A stretch of DNA of 27,019 bases, taken from a virus. Positions 1,501 through 24,783 of this stretch are shown here, in pieces. Numbering within the stretch: the stretch's first letter is position 1; each line of letters begins with the position of its first letter. The stretch covers positions 1-27,019 of the IMG/VR virus record IMGVR_UViG_3300037502_000162; one strand, 5' to 3'. The notes under the pieces were generated by a model, which was not told where the DNA came from, did not search any database, and saw nothing but the letters and a program-made list of their open reading frames with translations. Both the position numbers and the translations under genes were made by a program.

Positions 1501-1766
1501 TTGTAGGTCTCCACGATTTCGTTGTAGTTGATACGACCAATAGCTGCTATCAGCAAGTCGTATATGAAGCCCTCAACAATGGTGGCATCATCAAGTGCCT
1601 GCACCATGTCGAGCACCCTGTTTCGCAGGGCCTCCGCCGTCATCTCATCTGGCGTCTCATTGCCTTCGACAAGCCAGAGGTTAGCAAGCCACGTCTCACG
1701 ATTTGTCCAGCCGTTGTAGGTGGATGTCTTGGCATTGGCAAGCAGGTCGTGTTCATCATGTGTCAT
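1497..1766 (-). CDS. Conserved phage protein with YNGWTNRETW motif (DUF7249-like), 89 aa
   Basis: Contains the segment 'YNGWTNRETWLANLWL' (residues 17-32), which recurs in small early proteins of many unrelated phages (I believe classed as DUF7249). The rest is predicted helical with many acidic residues. No catalytic motif is visible and the function is unknown. It is coupled at both ends: its ATG overlaps the stop of the alanine-rich repeat gene (ATGA at 1766-1763) and its stop overlaps the start of the 42-aa membrane gene. GGAGAC upstream is the likely Shine-Dalgarno. Confidence 0.85.
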   Translation of the reverse strand: MTHDEHDLLANAKTSTYNGWTNRETWLANLWLVEGNETPDEMTAEALRNRVLDMVQALDDATIVEGFIYDLLIAAIGRINYNEIVETYK

Positions 1767-2365
1767 TGTGTTGTCTCCATTCCAAATGCCGCATACACGC
1801 GGCGGTCAAACTCAGCCCAATCAGCAGCCCTAGCAGCAGCCCTATCAGCCTCCCAAGCAGCCCTAGCAGCAGCCCTAGCAGCAGCCCTAGCAGCAGCCCA
1901 AGCAGCAGCCTCAGCAGCAGCCCTAGCAGCAACCCTAGCAGCAGCCCAAGCAGCAGCCCAATCAGCAGCCCTAGCAGCAGCCCTAGCAGCACCACGTTTG
2001 CTTTCGTCCAGTGTAGTTAGATACTCCTGCACGACCTCTGGCATGTCCCAAAGGTGAGCCACAGACAGCGCCTGATCGGCAGCAAAGCGGCGCAGCAAGC
2101 GCTCGGCATCAATCGTGGCAAGGATCGTCCGCTCCGACGACACACCCTTGTCGTCGTCCATGGTAATCACACCACCATATCGCACCATGTGCAGCAACTT
2201 GCCGGGGGCGTAGTGCAGCGCCTGATGCGGCTTCAGCGACCAGTGGTATCCGCGTTCACACAGTCTAATCCTGCCCTTGTAAATCAGCGTCTCACCAATC
2301 GCAGGGATAGGAGAGCCGTCTCGAAGGGTGGCACCAGTGAAGTGCCAAGCGATGTTATCACTCAT
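1763..2365 (-). CDS. DUF7666-like protein with long alanine-rich tetrapeptide repeat, 200 aa
   Basis: Residues about 1-122 match a family I recall as DUF7666-like: 'WHFTGATLRDGSPIPAIGE', 'LCERGYHWSLKPHQAL', 'HYAPG', 'DDKGVSSERTILATID', 'LLRRFA' and 'HLWDMPEVVQEYL'. Residues about 126-181 are an alanine-rich array in which each fourth position is R, W, E or D (AARA, ADWA, AAWA, AAEA), predicted as one long helix. Homologues also often end in such arrays, which expand and shrink. Function is unknown. The start at ATG 2365 overlaps the upstream stop (ATGA) and follows AGAGGA; the frame is open further upstream but that part would lie inside the neighbouring gene. Confidence 0.85.
   Translation of the reverse strand: MSDNIAWHFTGATLRDGSPIPAIGETLIYKGRIRLCERGYHWSLKPHQALHYAPGKLLHMVRYGGVITMDDDKGVSSERTILATIDAERLLRRFAADQALSVAHLWDMPEVVQEYLTTLDESKRGAARAAARAADWAAAWAAARVAARAAAEAAAWAAARAAARAAARAAWEADRAAARAADWAEFDRRVYAAFGMETTQ
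1823..1990 (-). repeat. 12-bp degenerate tandem repeat encoding Ala-rich tetrapeptides
   Basis: About 14 imperfect 12-bp units built on GCAGCCCTAGCA (plus-strand view) lie inside the coding sequence and keep frame, each encoding an AAxA tetrapeptide. Variation among units is mostly in the codon of the x residue (R, W, E, D, V). Such an array can change copy number by slipped-strand replication without breaking the gene. It creates long spurious open frames on both strands, including a leucine-rich one, that should be ignored. Confidence 0.85.
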
Positions 2366-2574
2366 GTCATATCCTCTAGCAGCATCTGATAGGCCACAAG
2401 CTTGTCTTGTGCATAGGTGATGCAACCGACACCAATGAGGCCATGCTCTTTTGCCTCATCCTGCCAGTCGAAGTATAGTTTCCACAGGTGGATGGCGTGT
2501 TGCAGTGCAGCATCATCCTTGTTGGCGTTTGCATCATATGCTGCACGGGCGATGTCCTCGGCGTTCTTAAGCAT
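2362..2574 (-). CDS. Hypothetical small phage protein, 70 aa
   Basis: Starts at ATG 2574 with AGAGGG upstream, overlapping the last 8 bases of the preceding 64-aa gene, and ends overlapping the next start (ATGA). The product begins MLKNAEDIARAAYDAN and is mostly helical, with a central 'HLWKLYFDWQDEAKEHG' segment. A longer frame starting at 2640 would cover most of the upstream gene and lacks a ribosome-binding site. No family is recognised. Confidence 0.7.
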   Translation of the reverse strand: MLKNAEDIARAAYDANANKDDAALQHAIHLWKLYFDWQDEAKEHGLIGVGCITYAQDKLVAYQMLLEDMT

Positions 2575-5782: not shown

Positions 5783-6037
5783 ATGGCTAAGTCCCCTGCA
5801 TGGCAGCGTAAAGAAGGCAAAGACCCTGCTGGCGGCTTGAATGCCAAAGGCAGGGCTTCAGCACGTGCTCAAGGCATGAATCTGAAGCCTCCTGCTCCCA
5901 ATCCAAAGACAGATAAAGATAAAAAGAGGCGAAAAAGTTTTTGTGCTCGATCCGCAGGACAGATGAAAATGTTCCCTGAGGCTGCAAAAGACCCTGAGAG
6001 TAGGCTTCGTAAGGCTAGGCGCGCATGGAACTGCTGA
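5783..6037 (+). CDS. Small basic phage protein, DUF6321-like, 84 aa
   Basis: Begins MAKSPAWQRKEGKDPAGGLN. The 'SPAWQRKEGK-x-P-x-GGLNAKGR' start and the 'RRKSFCARSAGQMKM' centre (about residues 49-63) recur in a family of small phage proteins I recall as DUF6321-like; the family has no known function. The product is strongly basic and probably binds nucleic acid. A GTG at 5777 is in frame but ATG 5783 is the better start. It overlaps the endonuclease VII gene by 13 bases. Confidence 0.8.
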   Translation: MAKSPAWQRKEGKDPAGGLNAKGRASARAQGMNLKPPAPNPKTDKDKKRRKSFCARSAGQMKMFPEAAKDPESRLRKARRAWNC

Positions 6038-6435
6038 CCTGTACAAAGTGCAAGACTGAAAAGCCTGCTGATTTGCAGCATTTTCCTCCTCACAACAAGA
6101 AGAAGAATGGGCTTGACAGTTGGTGCAGAGAATGCAGAAGCGCATATCGCAGCAGTATTAATCGTGGTGCCTTTCGTTCTGTAATATCAGACACTGCTTT
6201 GATTGACATGAAGGCATCTGTAACTTCTTGCGTTATCTGTGGGTCAAACGAAAAACTTGTTGTTGATCACGATCACGCTACAGGACAGATTCGTGGTATG
6301 CTGTGCGGGCACTGCAACAGAGGCTTAGGTCATTTTCGTGACGATCCTATGCTGCTTGAGTTTGCTAGGGTGTATCTTTTGTCAAACAGTAGTGACCCTG
6401 AAGCAGAAGAGTATCTAGAAAAACATAGTGCTTGA
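6025..6435 (+). CDS. Recombination endonuclease VII-like HNH nuclease, 136 aa
   Basis: Matches the endonuclease VII family (T4 gp49 type), which cleaves branched DNA such as four-way junctions before packaging. Residues 6-9 (CTKC) and 34-37 (CREC) form an N-terminal zinc-finger-like pair, and C69-x2-C72 with C94-x2-C97 form the core zinc site. The catalytic-type motif is 'VVDHDHATGQIRGMLC' (about 79-94) followed by 'CNRGLGHFRDD'. The extra N-terminal zinc ribbon is common in phage relatives. Its role here is probably resolving replication or recombination intermediates; homing is an alternative. Confidence 0.9.
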   Translation: MELLTCTKCKTEKPADLQHFPPHNKKKNGLDSWCRECRSAYRSSINRGAFRSVISDTALIDMKASVTSCVICGSNEKLVVDHDHATGQIRGMLCGHCNRGLGHFRDDPMLLEFARVYLLSNSSDPEAEEYLEKHSA

Positions 6436-6622: not shown

Positions 6623-6869
6623 TCTCAAGAAGCCTCAGCAAAGCCTTCGTAAGTGGACCAAGGAAGAATGGGGTACCAAATCAGGTAAACCATCTACTGT
6701 AGGCAAGGGTGCTACAGGTGAACGCTATCTTCCCAAGGCTGCACGTGAAGCCTTGACGCCTGCTGAGTATGCTGCTACATCTCGTGCCAAGAGAGAAGGC
6801 ACCAAGGCGGGTAAACAATTCGTTAAACAGCCATCCAAGATTGCTGAGAAGACTGCAAGGTATCGCTGA
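6615..6869 (+). CDS. Conserved basic phage protein, 84 aa (GTG start)
   Basis: GTG at 6615 is the likely start: GGGTGG lies upstream, it overlaps the previous gene's end, and the resulting N-terminus 'MTNLKKPQQSLRKWTKEEW' fits the family. Later hallmarks are 'GERYLPKAAREALTPAEYA' and 'GKQFVKQPSKIAEKTARYR'. Proteins with this pattern occur widely in phages beside relatives of the preceding gene. Function is unknown; the high lysine/arginine content suggests nucleic-acid binding. Confidence 0.85.
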   Translation: MTNLKKPQQSLRKWTKEEWGTKSGKPSTVGKGATGERYLPKAAREALTPAEYAATSRAKREGTKAGKQFVKQPSKIAEKTARYR

Positions 6870-6870
6870 T

Positions 6871-7116
6871 ATGTCACGTGACTACGGCTCTGAGTATAGC
6901 AACTACCACGCTGCTCCTGAGCAGAAGCGCAAACGTGCTTCACGCAATGCTGCAAGGCGTGAAATGGAGCGTAAAGGACGTGTTTCCAAGGGCGATGGCA
7001 AGGATATTGATCACAAGAATGGCAATCCTCGTGACAATAGCCCGTCTAACCTGCGTGTGAAGCCTAAAAGTAGCAACAGGTCGTTCCCTAGAAACGCCAA
7101 AGCAGGAAAGAAGTAG
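6871..7116 (+). CDS. HNH-like small phage protein, 81 aa
   Basis: Starts at ATG 6871, one base after the previous stop. The product begins MSRDYGSEYSNYHAAPEQKR and carries 'DIDHKNGNPRDNSPSNLRV', which resembles the central D-H-x-N-G-N and trailing N of HNH endonucleases, followed by 'SSNRSFPR'. The complete ordered HNH triad is not obvious, so it may be a degenerate or minimal relative. It is conserved in many tailed phages and often annotated as HNH endonuclease. Strongly basic. Confidence 0.75.
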   Translation: MSRDYGSEYSNYHAAPEQKRKRASRNAARREMERKGRVSKGDGKDIDHKNGNPRDNSPSNLRVKPKSSNRSFPRNAKAGKK

Positions 7117-12471: not shown

Positions 12472-12913
12472 GTACCAACTTGAACGAGTAGACCTCGGAT
12501 TTTGGACACTACCAAAACCGCCTGATCCGCTGAAAAAGTATCGCAAAGAATGGGAACGCATACCTAATCTGCAGATGTACAGGCAGCAGCCTTTTGGTTA
12601 CATCCTTGATCCTGCAGATAATGATTGGCTGCTGCCTGTCGATAACGAATTGTCGCTTTTAGACCTTGCAAAGAAGCACGTAAGGAAGTATAGTTACAAC
12701 GATGTTGCTGCGTGGTTGTCTACACAGACAGGCAGATACATCAGTGGCAAAGGTCTGAAGAAGAGGATTGAAATTGACAGACGACGCAAGAGACTCATTG
12801 ATCTTAAACGCTTCTACGCGAGGCGGTATAAAAAAATCCTTGAGCAACTCGACGCTCTCGAAAAGACGCGCCTCGGTAAAGCGAAGGACAACGAAAGCGA
12901 AGATAACTCCTGA
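12455..12913 (+). CDS. Terminase-associated phage protein, 152 aa
   Basis: Begins MKKRNKYQLERVDLGFWTLP and contains 'PPDPLKKYRKEWERIPNLQ', then a helix-turn-helix-like part ('SYNDVAAWLSTQTGRYIS', about residues 79-96) and a long basic coiled coil. I recall this family between small and large terminase genes in marine phages. It may assist DNA recognition or the packaging motor. It overlaps the proposed start of the large terminase, so the two are probably coupled. Confidence 0.75.
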   Translation: MKKRNKYQLERVDLGFWTLPKPPDPLKKYRKEWERIPNLQMYRQQPFGYILDPADNDWLLPVDNELSLLDLAKKHVRKYSYNDVAAWLSTQTGRYISGKGLKKRIEIDRRRKRLIDLKRFYARRYKKILEQLDALEKTRLGKAKDNESEDNS

Positions 12914-13073
12914 GATTAAGTCAGAGACAAACATTGTACCAGCCAAAGCAATGGCTGCTGCATACGAGGTAGAGAATGCACAAAACATTGTGTTTAAACC
13001 CAATCCGGGGCCTCAAACAGATTTTTTGGCTGCTACTGAAAGGCAAGTCTTGTTCGGTGGAGCCGCTGGTGGT
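12840..13073 (+). CDS. terL: Terminase large subunit, exon 1 (78 codons)
   Basis: This reading frame gives 'KITPEIKSETNIVPAKAMAA', 'NAQNIVFKPNPGPQTDFLA' and 'RQVLFGGAAGG', the known N-terminal part of large terminases, and breaks off within the Walker A motif where the group I intron begins. Joined to exon 2 it gives GGAAGGGKS. There is no ATG before codon 38 (12951), which would delete conserved residues. TTG at 12840 is my best start, inside the upstream gene, with a poor Shine-Dalgarno site; ATT 12915 is another possibility. The last six bases (GGTGGT) pair with GCTACC (13095-13100) as intron P1. Confidence 0.8.
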
Positions 13074-13937
13074 AAAGTAAATACGCTTTCTGTCGCTACC
13101 TTTTCGTGGTAACACGATCAAAATAAACTTCGTGAACTGCTGGAAAACTTTTATTCTGTCTCACGCTACAACATAACTGGCAACAGTAAGTGTGAATGCT
13201 TGAAAAGAGAGACAGTTAAGCAATCAGCAGCCAAGCGTCTCACTGAGATGAAGGTTCAGAGGCCATCCCGTCAGGGAGTAGGGGAAACCCGAAGCGCGAA
13301 GCCCCTGTTACGCAGGGTGAAGATATGGTCCAAAGCAACTTTAATGTTTGACCAGCGAAAGCTGAAGTACCAAAAGGTAGAAACATGCAATACGTACTGT
13401 ACAAGGCGACATCGCCTTCTGGAAGAACATACATAGGCATTACAAATAACTTCAAGCGTAGAATGAAAGAACACGGGAGTAGTCCTTACGCTTTTGGCAA
13501 AGCGTTACGCAAGTACGGCAGAGAAAACTTTAACTACGAGTTTGAGTTGTATCCTGACGTAGAAGCAGCCTTGACAAGAGAGGCGGAACTTGTTACTGTA
13601 GAGGCGGTTAAGTCAAAGCGACTCTACAACGAGTCTGTCGGTGGAGTATTCAGCGACTCGTTGAGAAACATGAATCCGATGCACAATCCTGAAGTTCTAA
13701 GTAGACACCCGAATTTGTTTACATCAGAGAATAACCCTATGAACGATCCAGAAGTACGCGAAAAGGCTAAAGCATCACATGAACCTTACAAGAAAAAGGT
13801 TTCTATAGATGGCGTTGTGTACGTAGGTGTTAGAGAGGCAGCACGGCAACTAAACTCGTATAGGCAGTTTGTTGTACATAGGCTAAAATCTTCTAACTAT
13901 CCAACATGGTTCTACGTCAAAGATTAAAGTTGCTTTG
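13074..13937 (+). ncRNA. Group I intron in terL with GIY-YIG endonuclease gene
   Basis: Core segments are visible in order: P (AACTGCTGG, 13135-13143), Q (AATCAGCAGCCAAG, from 13222), R (AAGGTTCAGAGGCCAT, ending 13266) and S (GGTGAAGATATGGTCC, 13316-13331). P7 pairs GGCCAT (13261-13266) with ATGGTC (13325-13330). P1 pairs exon GGTGGT with GCTACC, ending in the expected U-G pair at the splice site; TCGTG/CACGA (13104-13117) forms a P2-like hairpin. The intron ends in G (13937), as group I introns do. Subgroup IA is likely. The endonuclease gene lies downstream of the core, in the P9 region. Confidence 0.9.
13385..13927 (+). CDS. GIY-YIG homing endonuclease, 180 aa (intron-encoded)
   Basis: Residues 3-18 carry the GIY-YIG signature in the form YVLY...TYIG, followed by R25/R26 and H30; the catalytic glutamate is probably one of E66/E68. 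A linker region contains two NUMOD3-like repeats ('MNPMHNPEVLSRHPNLF' and 'NNPMNDPEVREKAKASH', about 95-132), and the C-terminus has a NUMOD1-like helix-turn-helix ('SIDGVVYVGVREAARQLN', about 139-156). This is the I-TevI-like layout of catalytic and DNA-binding ends. It should cut intron-lacking terminase genes near the insertion site and spread the intron. AAAAGG upstream of ATG is the ribosome-binding site. Confidence 0.92.
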   Translation: MQYVLYKATSPSGRTYIGITNNFKRRMKEHGSSPYAFGKALRKYGRENFNYEFELYPDVEAALTREAELVTVEAVKSKRLYNESVGGVFSDSLRNMNPMHNPEVLSRHPNLFTSENNPMNDPEVREKAKASHEPYKKKVSIDGVVYVGVREAARQLNSYRQFVVHRLKSSNYPTWFYVKD

Positions 13938-15233
13938 GGTAAATCCTATGCCATGCTTGCTGACCCTTTGCGTGACATGAATAATCCCGGCTTCAGTGGC
14001 CTTCTTGTTCGACATACTACTGAAGAACTCCGTGAACTCATCATGAAATCACAGGAGTTGTATCCTAAAGCTATTCCGGGCATTCGATGGAGTGAACGAA
14101 AGCAGCAGTGGGTTACGCCTCGTGGTGGAACACTGTGGATGTCGTATCTCGACAGGGACATGGATGTTCTGCGCTATCAAGGACAGGCATTTAACTGGAT
14201 TGGCTTTGACGAGTTGACGCAATGGGCTACTCCCTATGCATTCAACTACATGGGGTCTCGTCTTCGTACCGCTGATTCTACACTGAAACTGTACATGCGA
14301 TGCACTAGCAACCCCGGTGGTCCGGGACACAGTTGGGTGAAAAAGGGTTTCGTTGATCCGTCGCCATATAATAAAGCCTTTGCTGCAGTAGACTTTGAAA
14401 CGGGTGAAGTACTCAAGTTTCCGAAAGGTCACAGCAGAGAAGGTGAACCACTCTACAAGCGGCGATTCATTCCTGCCACACTGTTTGACAATCCTTATCT
14501 TGCAAAGGATGGCGAATACGAGTCAATGCTTCTGTCTATGCCAGAAAATCAGCGTAGACAACTGCTGTATGGCGATTGGGATGTGTCTGATGGCGCTGCA
14601 TTTCCTGAGTTTAACAGGAACATACACGTCATTGATCCCTTTCCTATCCCGTCCAATTGGGCGCGTTTTCGTGCAGCAGACTATGGCTACGGCAGTATGA
14701 CTGCAGTTTTGTGGTTTGCCGTTACACCGTCTGAGCAGCTTATCGTGTATCGTGAACTCTACGTCAAGAAAGTCACAGCGGTTGATCTTGCTGAGATGAT
14801 CAATGAGATAGAGAGAGAAGACAAGATTCGCTACGGTGTGCTGGACTCGTCTTTGTGGCATAAGCGTGGTGACACAGGCCCTTCTCTTGCGGAGCAAATG
14901 ATCATGAGGGGCTGCAGATGGCGTCCCTCGGATCGAAGCAAAGGGTCTCGCGTAGCTGGCAAGAACGAGTTGCATCGTAGGCTTCAGATAGACGAGTTCA
15001 CAAATGAGCCTAGACTTGTGTTCTTCTCTACTTGCACTAACTTGATTGCTGAATTGCCTGTCCTACCGCTGGACAGAAACAATCCAGAAGACGTAGATAC
15101 AGCGGCCAATGATCACGGGTACGATGCGCTGCGATACGGAATCATGAGCCGTCCCCGCAGCAGCATATGGGACTACGATCCTGCATCAAATGGTAACAAA
15201 TTCAAGCCTGCAGACTCAGTATTAGGATACTAA
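13938..15233 (+). CDS. terL: Terminase large subunit, exon 2 (431 codons)
   Basis: Starts at the GGT completing Walker A: GKSYAMLADPL follows directly. Walker B is 'FNWIGFDEL' (D169, E170 in spliced numbering). The C-terminal nuclease domain shows 'FRAADYGYGSMTAVLWF', 'YGVLDSSLWHKRGD' and 'ANDHGYDALRYG', each supplying an acidic residue of the metal site. The spliced protein is about 509 residues, normal for an ATP-driven DNA packaging motor with headful or end-cutting nuclease. Without splicing, exon 2 has no start codon with ribosome-binding site and lacks a complete Walker A, so splicing is required. Confidence 0.93.
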   Translation, partial: GKSYAMLADPLRDMNNPGFSGLLVRHTTEELRELIMKSQELYPKAIPGIRWSERKQQWVTPRGGTLWMSYLDRDMDVLRYQGQAFNWIGFDELTQWATPYAFNYMGSRLRTADSTLKLYMRCTSNPGGPGHSWVKKGFVDPSPYNKAFAAVDFETGEVLKFPKGHSREGEPLYKRRFIPATLFDNPYLAKDGEYESMLLSMPENQRRQLLYGDWDVSDGAAFPEFNRNIHVIDPFPIPSNWARFRAADYGYGSMTAVLWFAVTPSEQLIVYRELYVKKVTAVDLAEMINEIEREDKIRYGVLDSSLWHKRGDTGPSLAEQMIMRGCRWRPSDRSKGSRVAGKNELHRRLQIDEFTNEPRLVFFSTCTNLIAELPVLPLDRNNPEDVDTAANDHGYDALRYGIMSRPRSSIWDYDPASNGNKFKPADSVLGY

Positions 15234-22796: not shown

Positions 22797-22979
22797 ATGG
22801 CTTTTCAAACTGCTGCAGGCTATACCAACCTGCCCAATGGCAATTTCAGTAGCGTAATCTACTCGAAAAAAGTCCAACTCGCGTTCCGTAAGGCCACCGT
22901 TGTCGGTGCGATTACGAACTCGGATTACTTCGGTGAAATCGCTAATCAGGGTGACACCGTTCGTATCATCAAAGAGCCT
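22797..22979 (+). CDS. Major capsid protein, exon 1 (61 codons)
   Basis: Begins MAFQTAAGYTNLPNGNFSSV with GGAGG upstream. The text 'VIYSKKVQLAFRKATVVGAI' and 'SDYFGEIANQGDTVRIIKEP' is the conserved N-terminus of a podovirus major capsid family. After RIIKEP the frame turns into intron and ends within nine codons. Relatives continue as in exon 2 (EISVAAY). Bases GCCT (22976-22979) pair with GGGC (22988-22991), ending in U-G at the splice site. Spliced length is 357 residues. Confidence 0.92.
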
Positions 22980-23892
22980 AGAATTTTGGGCCTTCTGGCG
23001 GCATAACGTCAGTAAGATAATCCTGTGAATTGCTGGAACCCTAAGTCTTAGGATATGGGAATCAGCAGCCAAGCCCCGAGAGGGGAAGGTTCAACGACTA
23101 GGATATACTTATAATCAAGTAGTGGCTCGGCGTAGCTAACGAAAGGGAAAAACATGAACGCACGTAAACGTGGCATCCTTTATGGGATGGCTATAGGTGA
23201 TGGTTGTATCTCCTTGAATAAGAGTGCAAAAGACGATACAGCACGGTTAATCATAGGACATGGACCTATGCAACTGGCTTATCTTAAAGATAAGGCGCGT
23301 CTTCTTCATTCTATTCTTGGAGGAAAAGAAATACCTATATATACACACAAAAGTTACAATCACTCTACTCAAAAAGAGTACACGAACCATCAGTTGTATC
23401 GTAATGAAGCCTACTTTAGGCAGATGCACAGAGTGATGTATCCACAAGGCAAAAAACTCTTTACGGAACAGCTTCTTAGTTATCTAACAGACTACAGCTT
23501 AGCACTGTGGTATATGGATGACGGAAGCGGCACTATTTCAAAGAACGCAAAAACAAAAGCGCCTTGCGGTTGTATGACACGTATCTCTACGTATTGTTCA
23601 AAATATGAAGCAGAACTTCTTAAGGAGTGGTTTCTTGACAAGTACAAAATAGAACCTAAGTTTGATGTGGATAAGCGCAGCAACAAGTATTCTTTGCGGT
23701 TTAACACAAACGACTCTAGGACGTTTGTATCTGTCGTGGCACCATACGTATTTCCTTCTATGAAGTATAAACTTGCTCATGTAGACAAGTATATCCCACG
23801 AGCGCAGGACACCCTAAGGGGTGAAGATATAGTCTGAACTTTAGGGAAACCTAAAGGTATGCGAAATTAAAAAGGCATACGTAACTGTTTTG
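22980..23892 (+). ncRNA. Group I intron in the capsid gene with LAGLIDADG endonuclease
   Basis: P (AATTGCTGG, 23028-23036), Q (AATCAGCAGCCAAG, from 23060), R (GAAGGTTCAACGACTA, ending 23100) and S (GGTGAAGATATAGTC, 23820-23834) are all present. P7 pairs GACTA (23096-23100) with TAGTC (23830-23834). P1 pairs exon GCCT with GGGC. P10 pairs exon 2 GAAAT (23893-23897) with ATTTT (22983-22987), strongly supporting both splice sites. It ends in G (23892). The endonuclease gene lies between R and S, so within the P8 region, and its 3-prime end overlaps the core. Confidence 0.92.
23154..23837 (+). CDS. LAGLIDADG homing endonuclease, 227 aa (intron-encoded)
   Basis: Two LAGLIDADG motifs are present: 'ILYGMAIGDG' (residues 8-17; D16 catalytic) and 'LALWYMDDG' (about 116-124), about 105 residues apart as in single-chain enzymes. 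GAAAGGG upstream of ATG is a good ribosome-binding site. The enzyme should cut capsid genes lacking the intron. Its last codons (GEDIV then stop) are read from the ribozyme S segment, so protein and RNA constraints overlap there. It is unrelated to the GIY-YIG enzyme of the terminase intron. Confidence 0.92.
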   Translation: MNARKRGILYGMAIGDGCISLNKSAKDDTARLIIGHGPMQLAYLKDKARLLHSILGGKEIPIYTHKSYNHSTQKEYTNHQLYRNEAYFRQMHRVMYPQGKKLFTEQLLSYLTDYSLALWYMDDGSGTISKNAKTKAPCGCMTRISTYCSKYEAELLKEWFLDKYKIEPKFDVDKRSNKYSLRFNTNDSRTFVSVVAPYVFPSMKYKLAHVDKYIPRAQDTLRGEDIV

Positions 23893-24783
23893 GAAATCTC
23901 GGTTGCTGCGTATGCTCGTGGCACTCAGATCACGCCGCAAGACCTTGATGACGAAGACTTTTCGCTCATCATCGACAAAGCGAACTACTATGCGTTCAAA
24001 GTTGATGACATCGAAGCTGCGCATTCGCATGTCAACTTCATGGACCTTGCGACCAACCGTGCTGCCTATCGTCTTGCTGACCAGCATGACCAAGAAGTTC
24101 TTGGCTACCTGTCTGGCTACAAGCAGTCGGCTCTGCACTCCGCTGCTGACACCGTTAATGACATCGTGAACGGCACGAAAGCTATCTCGTCGGCTGGTTC
24201 GGATGAACTTCTGACTGGCATGAAGTTGATCAAGAGTTCGTTTGGCAACATCACCACTGTTGGTGCTGGCGATCACTCGATCCCCGTTGCTGCTCGTCTT
24301 CCGGGCGCTACGTCGCTTCCGACCGACTACGTGTCGCCTGCCATGCTCGTTTCGCGTATGGCTCGTCTGCTTGACCAGCAGAACGTGGAATCGACGGGTC
24401 GCTGGCTCGTTGTCGATCCTGTGATGCTTGAAGTCCTCCGCGATGAAGATTCGCGTCTGCTTCAGGCCGAGTGGGGTCAGTCGGGTGCGCTGCGTAATGG
24501 CCTCGTGCTCAGCAACTTCCACGGCTTCCGTGTTCACGTGTCGAACAACCTGCCGAAAAAGGGCACTGGTCCGGGTACCACTGGTACTGGCAACCAGAAC
24601 AACAACTTCGGTGTCGTCGTTGCTGGTCATGATTCGGCTGTCGCCACTGCTGAGCAGATCAGCAAGACAGAAACCTATCGCGATCCTGACTCGTTTGCTG
24701 ACATTGTTCGGGGTATGCACCTCTATGGCCGTAAAATCCTTCGTCCTGAAGCGATTGTTACCGCCAAGTACAACCTCGCGTAA
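23893..24783 (+). CDS. Major capsid protein, exon 2 (296 codons plus stop)
   Basis: Continues the capsid as 'EISVAAYARGTQITPQDLDD' with 'DKANYYAFKVDDIEAAHSHV', 'MDLATNRAAYRLADQHDQEV' and 'SPAMLVSRMARLLDQQNVES', ending 'GRKILRPEAIVTAKYNLA'. These are the E-loop, spine and axial-type regions of an HK97-fold capsid in this family; positions are not certain. There is no own start codon with ribosome-binding site. Serine is nearly always TCG and codon ends are C-rich, unlike the portal or scaffold, fitting very high expression. Confidence 0.93.
   Translation, partial: EISVAAYARGTQITPQDLDDEDFSLIIDKANYYAFKVDDIEAAHSHVNFMDLATNRAAYRLADQHDQEVLGYLSGYKQSALHSAADTVNDIVNGTKAISSAGSDELLTGMKLIKSSFGNITTVGAGDHSIPVAARLPGATSLPTDYVSPAMLVSRMARLLDQQNVESTGRWLVVDPVMLEVLRDEDSRLLQAEWGQSGALRNGLVLSNFHGFRVHVSNNLPKKGTGPGTTGTGNQNNNFGVVVAGHDSAVATAEQISKTETYRDPDSFADIVRGMHLYGRKILRPEAIVTAKYNLA

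What the first reader, a model, noticed from the sequence alone, without database searches (positions are those of the whole stretch)
12840..15233. Group I intron splits the terminase Walker A motif
Exon 1 ends in coding for GGAAGG and exon 2 begins GKS, so the phage packs its DNA only if the ribozyme splices. The P, Q, R, S segments, P7, P1 with the terminal U-G pair and the ending G are all visible, and the insertion is in the most conserved part of the gene, where a homing endonuclease meets the fewest resistant variants.
Basis: partly seen in the sequence, partly recalled or inferred. Interest (0 to 1): 0.8.

Follow-up and report, generated by a model that had tools for sequence, protein, structure and literature searches.

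The report
Homing intron inside phage packaging gene
A self-splicing RNA element carrying its own DNA-cutting enzyme sits exactly inside the ATP-binding motif of a marine phage's DNA-packaging motor gene; it is real and well supported, but elements of this kind are already known in this gene, including one in cholera phage ICP1 shown to splice.

Summary
The window is a 27-kb fragment of an HMO-2011/roseophage-type virus. TerL exon 1 (probably 12774-13073) and exon 2 (13938-15233) are separated by an 864-nt group I intron (13074-13937; Rfam RF00028, E 9e-11) that holds an I-TevI-like GIY-YIG homing endonuclease in its P9 loop. Joining the exons restores LFGGAAGG|GKS. Two relatives 95% identical in TerL carry the uninterrupted gene at exactly this junction. 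Twenty-three other contigs carry the same intron family, all in TerL and, where readable, at the same nucleotide. The exon's Walker A glycine codon covaries with the guide sequence (GGT/A, GGA/T, GGG/C), 98.8% of helix cells pair, and 26 pairs change on both sides. Both exons evolve under strong purifying selection. Splicing and homing are very likely but were not observed here.

The kind is known: terminase introns have been reported since 1995, and the ICP1 terL intron, spliced in vivo, lies in the same motif 9 nt upstream. Possibly under-reported: this P-loop is a hot spot, also interrupted by other introns and by inteins. 'Most conserved part' holds at protein level (rank 3 of 453), only partly at DNA level.

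The parts
12774..13073 (+). TerL exon 1 (100 codons, probable TTG start), ends ...LFGGAAGG
   Evidence: Frame and TTG conserved in L002, L003, L088; aligns with ATG start of L108; contiguous with exon 2 in empty alleles
13074..13937 (+). Group I intron, 864 nt, ends in G
   Evidence: RF00028 52.2 bits; exact empty site in L002/L003; covariation
13068..13073 (+). 5' exon side of P1 (GGTGGT), second half of the Walker A glycines
   Evidence: 6/6 pairing with IGS in every allele whose exon could be read
13095..13100 (+). Internal guide sequence GCTACC (3' side of P1)
   Evidence: Covaries with exon: GGTGGT/GCTACC or GCCACC, GGAGGT/GCCTCC, GGGGGT/GCTCCC
13128..13134 (+). P3 5' strand
   Evidence: 4 of 7 pairs with both-side changes
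13138..13143 (+). P4 5' strand (P segment)
   Evidence: Invariant
13224..13229 (+). P4 3' strand (Q segment)
   Evidence: Invariant
13261..13265 (+). P7 5' strand (R segment, GGCCA)
   Evidence: C-G/U-A compensatory change at col 213/294
13295..13301 (+). P3 3' strand
13326..13330 (+). P7 3' strand (S segment, TGGTC)
13331..13345 (+). P9 5' strand
   Evidence: 15-bp pairing with 13923-13937; 8 of 10 counted pairs with both-side changes
13385..13927 (+). GIY-YIG homing endonuclease ORF (180 aa) in the P9 loop; its stop codon lies in the P9 3' strand
   Evidence: PF01541 and PF20987 above cut-off; PHROG 314; catalytic-position residues Y6, Y16, R25, H30, E66, N82 invariant in 16 relatives; C-terminal match to I-TevI 1i3j
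13923..13937 (+). P9 3' strand and terminal G
13938..15233 (+). TerL exon 2 (431 aa + stop), begins GKSYAM
   Evidence: PF03237; PHROG 979 terminase large subunit

Best explanation
A mobile group I intron with an I-TevI-like GIY-YIG endonuclease has homed into the Walker A codons of TerL in an HMO-2011-type phage. In the pre-mRNA the exon's GGUGGU pairs with the guide GCUACC to form P1; guanosine attacks after the U of the U-G pair, and the ligated exons give GGAAGGGKS. The endonuclease would cut intronless terL alleles of co-infecting phages at the uninterrupted site, and repair from the intron-bearing copy spreads the element. Shown by sequence: the architecture, exact empty sites, exon-guide covariation, purifying selection and incongruent divergence of intron and gene. 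Inferred: ribozyme activity, dependence of packaging on splicing, DNA cleavage and homing.
For: RF00028 hit E 9e-11. Empty alleles L002/L003, 95% aa identity, join exactly at the predicted sites. All 22 loci found with the endonuclease as query lie in TerL, and every one whose junction could be read has the insertion at this nucleotide; a 23rd is L310. 54 pairs: 98.8% of cells paired, 26 pairs and 134 cells changed on both sides against 17.9 and 40.7 in shuffles, covariation score 0.413 against 0.03-0.10 when slid. dN/dS about 0.03-0.05 for both exons and 0.07 for the endonuclease. Intron ORF much closer than host exon in pairs L087/L089 (pS 0.27 vs 0.71), L099/L101 (0.00 vs 0.24), L102/L104 (0.12 vs 0.43). 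Catalytic positions intact. One TerL per record.
Against: No RNA data. The record is a 27-kb linear fragment, so a second terL cannot be excluded. MFE folding of the window sequence alone is only modestly better than shuffles (z -1.7). The incongruent divergence could partly come from exchange of exon 2 rather than movement of the intron; L087 and L089 are about 95% identical again in the portal gene.
Confidence: 0.94

Rival explanations
1. A decayed, non-splicing intron in a terL pseudogene, or a terL replaced by another copy.
For: The record is incomplete, and splicing was not observed.
Against: dN/dS 0.03-0.05 on both exons; intact GIY-YIG catalytic positions; all helices paired; 23 further intron-bearing contigs keep open exons. 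Intron-bearing records of up to 64-68 kb hold a single TerL.
Confidence: 0.03
2. The intron has become a regulatory switch: splicing (GTP- and translation-sensitive) times terminase production late in infection, and the phage benefits from it.
For: The idea was proposed for phage introns in PMC11878797. The insertion is inside an essential late gene, so splicing must precede packaging.
Against: Only 3 of 313 TerL loci from similarity scans carry it, and closely related phages do without it; its distribution looks like that of a parasite.
Confidence: 0.1
3. The interruption is bypassed in another way: an intein, ribosomal bypassing or trans-assembly of two protein halves.
For: Inteins do interrupt the same motif in relatives.
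Against: The insert is not an open frame with exon 1 (stop 13 codons in), no intein match was seen, and it has a complete covarying ribozyme core.
Confidence: 0.01

Closest known systems
Vibrio phage ICP1 terL group I intron (PMC10448857)
   Same: Group I intron inside the Walker A codons of terL. Splicing shown there by RNA-seq, RT-PCR and Sanger. The exon 1 / exon 2 annotation error is the same.
   Different: ORF-less intron at YGGA^AGGGKS, 9 nt upstream of this site; T5orf172 endonuclease gene outside the intron; distant TerL.
Rhizobium phages RHph_N3_13 / RHph_I3_11 terL intron (found here, unannotated)
   Same: Related intron by core sequence (73% over 119 nt); IGS also targets a GGTGGT of the Walker A codons; TerL 56-58% identical.
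   Different: ORF-less, 222 nt, inserted 12 nt upstream at YGG^SAGGGKT.
Phage T4 td intron / I-TevI
   Same: Phage group I intron with P7.1/P7.2-like hairpins and a GIY-YIG endonuclease with I-TevI-type DNA-binding domain.
   Different: Host gene terL; ORF in P9; 180-aa protein; td features recalled from general knowledge, not compared here.
Lactobacillus phage LL-H terminase intron (Mikkonen and Alatossava 1995, cited in PMC4299906)
   Same: Group I intron with endonuclease ORF in terL.
   Different: HNH endonuclease; insertion about 100 codons downstream of the Walker A motif.
Bastillevirinae and Jug phage terL introns (PMC4299906, PMC11878797, PMC12363816)
   Same: Group I introns in terL, some with splicing shown.
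   Different: Different phages and endonuclease families; their sites relative to Walker A were not compared here.

Membership tests
Group I intron (RF00028) | Covariance-model match above gathering score | tested here: met
   52.2 vs 50 bits, full model 1-253
Group I intron (RF00028) | P3, P4, P6, P7, P8 core with P3/P7 pseudoknot, supported by covariation | tested here: met
Group I intron (RF00028) | Exon U paired to guide G at the 5' splice site, terminal intron G | tested here: met
   U-G in 17 of 17 aligned alleles; terminal G in all readable 3' ends
Group I intron (RF00028) | Guanosine-dependent self-splicing | not testable with these tools
   needs RNA
Group IA subgroup (td-like) | P7.1 and P7.2 between P7 and P3 | tested here: inconclusive
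   P7.1 fully paired; P7.2 present, but only one pair could be counted on the alignment; no subgroup model used
I-TevI-like GIY-YIG homing endonuclease | GIY-YIG catalytic domain and I-TevI DNA-binding domain | tested here: met
   PF01541 32.2 bits and PF20987 33 bits, both above cut-off; 1i3j E 1e-4
I-TevI-like GIY-YIG homing endonuclease | Catalytic Tyr/Tyr/Arg/His/Glu/Asn | tested here: met
   Y6, Y16, R25, H30, E66, N82 invariant in 16 proteins; assignment of these positions to I-TevI residues is from memory
I-TevI-like GIY-YIG homing endonuclease | Cuts the intronless allele | not testable with these tools
   needs enzyme assay
Terminase large subunit | TerL family match and Walker A after joining the exons | tested here: met
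   PF03237 above cut-off, PHROG 979, GGAAGGGKS restored

The most novel reading that the evidence does not exclude
The Walker A codons of phage TerL are a convergent insertion hot spot: separate group I introns (at GGAAGG^GKS, GG^SAGGGKT and, in ICP1, GGA^AGGGKS; probably a further one in Rheinheimera phages) and inteins (at GG^SAGGGKS and GGK^S) occupy positions within about 18 nt, so that unrelated parasites compete for, and exclude each other from, the same stretch of packaging-motor DNA.
Probability: 0.6. Interest if true: 0.5.

Novelty: new member of a known kind. Interest (0 to 1): 0.35.

Why it matters
Annotation pipelines report truncated terminases in such phages and miss exon 1 (as in RHph_N3_13 and RHph_I3_11). 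The family gives a clean natural series for exon-guide coevolution: synonymous glycine codons of a P-loop set which alleles an intron can splice from. The recurrence of introns and inteins in the same motif makes competition between homing elements testable.

Tried and rejected
A second full TerL in intron-bearing relatives was sought and not found. The second TerL copy in L092 proved to lie head-to-head, most likely a chimera with an intein-bearing allele. RNAalifold on the joined alignment forces R to pair locally instead of P7 because it cannot make pseudoknots, so a hand-drawn structure was counted. DNA search in the phage collection found only short core similarity to many phage introns. 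LL-H was rejected as a Walker A intron. No literature was found describing terL introns in HMO-2011-type phages, but only open-access papers were searched. Structure prediction was not run; it would add little.

Full report
What the window is. The window is one whole virus record of 27,019 bases, a linear fragment. TerL exon 2 is 70-76% identical to Roseobacter phages CRP-603, CRP-2, CRP-9 and others and to Puniceispirillum phage HMO-2011. Gene order around it (small terminase candidate, TerL, SU10-type portal, coat protein) matches CRP-603.

Observation. Joining 13073 to 13938 gives ...ERQVLFGGAAGGGKSYAML..., one open frame. Rfam RF00028 matches 13079-13351 with 52.2 bits against a gathering score of 50, E 9.1e-11. 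The start 12840 is doubtful: the frame is open from 12759, and the TTG at 12774 is conserved in L002, L003 and L088 and aligns with an ATG in L108, which gives 100 + 431 codons.

Empty sites. L002 and L003, 95% identical over exon 2, read AATERQVLFGGAAGG directly followed by GKSYAMLADP. DNA alignments break at 13072/13938. Of 313 TerL loci returned by four similarity scans, three carry an intron at this site (L004, L100, L310) and one an intein (L268); the rest that could be read are uninterrupted.

The family. Searching with the endonuclease found 22 loci, every one in TerL. L089 begins inside the ORF and L107 ends inside it; wherever a junction can be read, the insertion is at the identical nucleotide, GGAAGG^GK(S/T). 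L310 is one more. L004 and L087 are the same contig.

Ribozyme structure. In every allele with a readable exon the last six exon bases pair 6/6 with a guide that begins with G. The glycine codon's third base covaries with the guide: T with A, A with T, G with C. A P9 helix of 9-18 bp that encloses the ORF, rewritten by compensatory changes, joins the base after P7 to the last base of the intron. On 17 distinct alleles, 54 hand-assigned pairs in 11 helices are formed in 98.8% of cells; 26 pairs and 134 cells have both sides changed (shuffles 17.9 and 40.7; none of 500 shuffles reached them), and slid structures fall to 37-46% paired. The structure was drawn with these sequences in view, so the slid control overstates the contrast; the two-sided changes are the stronger evidence. 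Hairpins like P7.1 and P7.2 suggest subgroup IA, which was not tested with a subgroup model.

Endonuclease. The 180-aa ORF has GIY-YIG (PF01541) and I-TevI DNA-binding (PF20987) domains above cut-off, belongs to PHROG 314, homing endonuclease, matches the I-TevI DNA-binding structure 1i3j, and has Y6, Y16, R25, H30, E66 and N82 invariant in 16 relatives.

Function of the interrupted gene. dN/dS between window and relatives is 0.03-0.05 for both exons, so the split gene is under selection as a protein. Unspliced translation stops 13 codons into the intron. One TerL was found in each searched record, including a 64-kb intron-bearing one and the two complete Rhizobium phage genomes; in L345's record one TerL frame is matched in two pieces. 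Dependence of packaging on splicing follows, but is inference.

Mobility. For three close pairs the intron ORF is far more alike than the exon beside it: L087/L089 pS 0.27 against 0.71, L099/L101 0.00 against 0.24, L102/L104 0.12 against 0.43. This supports transfer of the intron between terL alleles, although for L087/L089 the portal gene is again about 95% identical, so replacement of exon 2 is an alternative.

Conservation argument. Over 308 uninterrupted relatives, GGAAGGGKS ranks 3rd of 453 nine-residue windows; at DNA level the 30 nt centred on the site rank 237th of 1354, and the best window overlapping Walker A is the third-best non-overlapping one. About 61% of alleles end the 5' exon in GGT; the others lack the U that group I splicing uses. 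All intron-bearing alleles whose 5' exon could be read have it. So synonymous variation at this motif does leave alleles that could not accept this intron unchanged.

Comparison with what is known. Terminase introns are known from LL-H (1995) and Moonbeam (PMC4299906), SIOphi and others with splicing shown (PMC11878797), and Jug phages with metatranscriptome support (PMC12363816). The closest is ICP1: its terL splicing was shown by RNA-seq, RT-PCR and Sanger (PMC10448857), and reading the ICP1 sequence puts that intron at FYGGA^AGGGKS, in the same motif. LL-H's intron is downstream of Walker A. The finding is therefore a new, well-supported member of a known kind.

Hot spot. Within the same motif I found the Rhizobium phage ORF-less intron at YGG^SAGGGKT, missed by the annotators; an intein C-terminus ending ...FTPTHN before SAGGGKS on a chimeric contig; an intein at GGAAGGGK^S in L268; and a group I hit just before AAGSGKS in a Rheinheimera phage, splice site not resolved. 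The two inteins were recognised by eye from their open frames and His-Asn ends, not by a profile search. This was not a systematic survey.

Noticed in passing
22980-23892 (exons 22797-22979 and 23893-24783): A second group I intron (RF00028 60.6 bits) with a LAGLIDADG ORF (23154-23837) splits the major capsid protein gene; joining gives IIKEP|EISVAA, colinear with the CRP-603 coat protein. L342-L345 have a LAGLIDADG relative at the same point of the coat gene; others have it about 18 codons earlier.
   Followed up: partly
L082 2009-2230 and L084 1772-1993: Unannotated 222-nt ORF-less group I intron in terL of Rhizobium phages RHph_N3_13 and RHph_I3_11; the annotated terminases are truncated at the intron.
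   Followed up: partly
L092 1-1138 (minus strand) and upstream: Head-to-head, probably chimeric contig; the reverse TerL copy (94% identical DNA) carries an intein ending at FTPTHN^SAGGGKS, 12 nt from the intron site of the forward copy.
   Followed up: partly
L268 upstream of 2504: TerL with an intein between Lys and Ser of the Walker A motif, in one open frame.
   Followed up: partly
L345 record (G013) 49608-51875: TerL match split within one 867-aa open frame after about residue 143, probably an intein elsewhere in TerL.
   Followed up: no
L384 2254-2473: Rheinheimera phage barba_10-8B: group I intron-like sequence (43 bits, below gathering) directly before AAGSGKS of TerL; 112 Rheinheimera phage records match TerL.
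   Followed up: partly
6025-6435 and 6769-7116: Free-standing endonuclease VII-like and HNH ORFs, further possible homing endonucleases in the same fragment.
   Followed up: no
1763-2425 (minus strand): ORF with a long alanine-rich low-complexity stretch (AAARAAW-like repeats).
   Followed up: no
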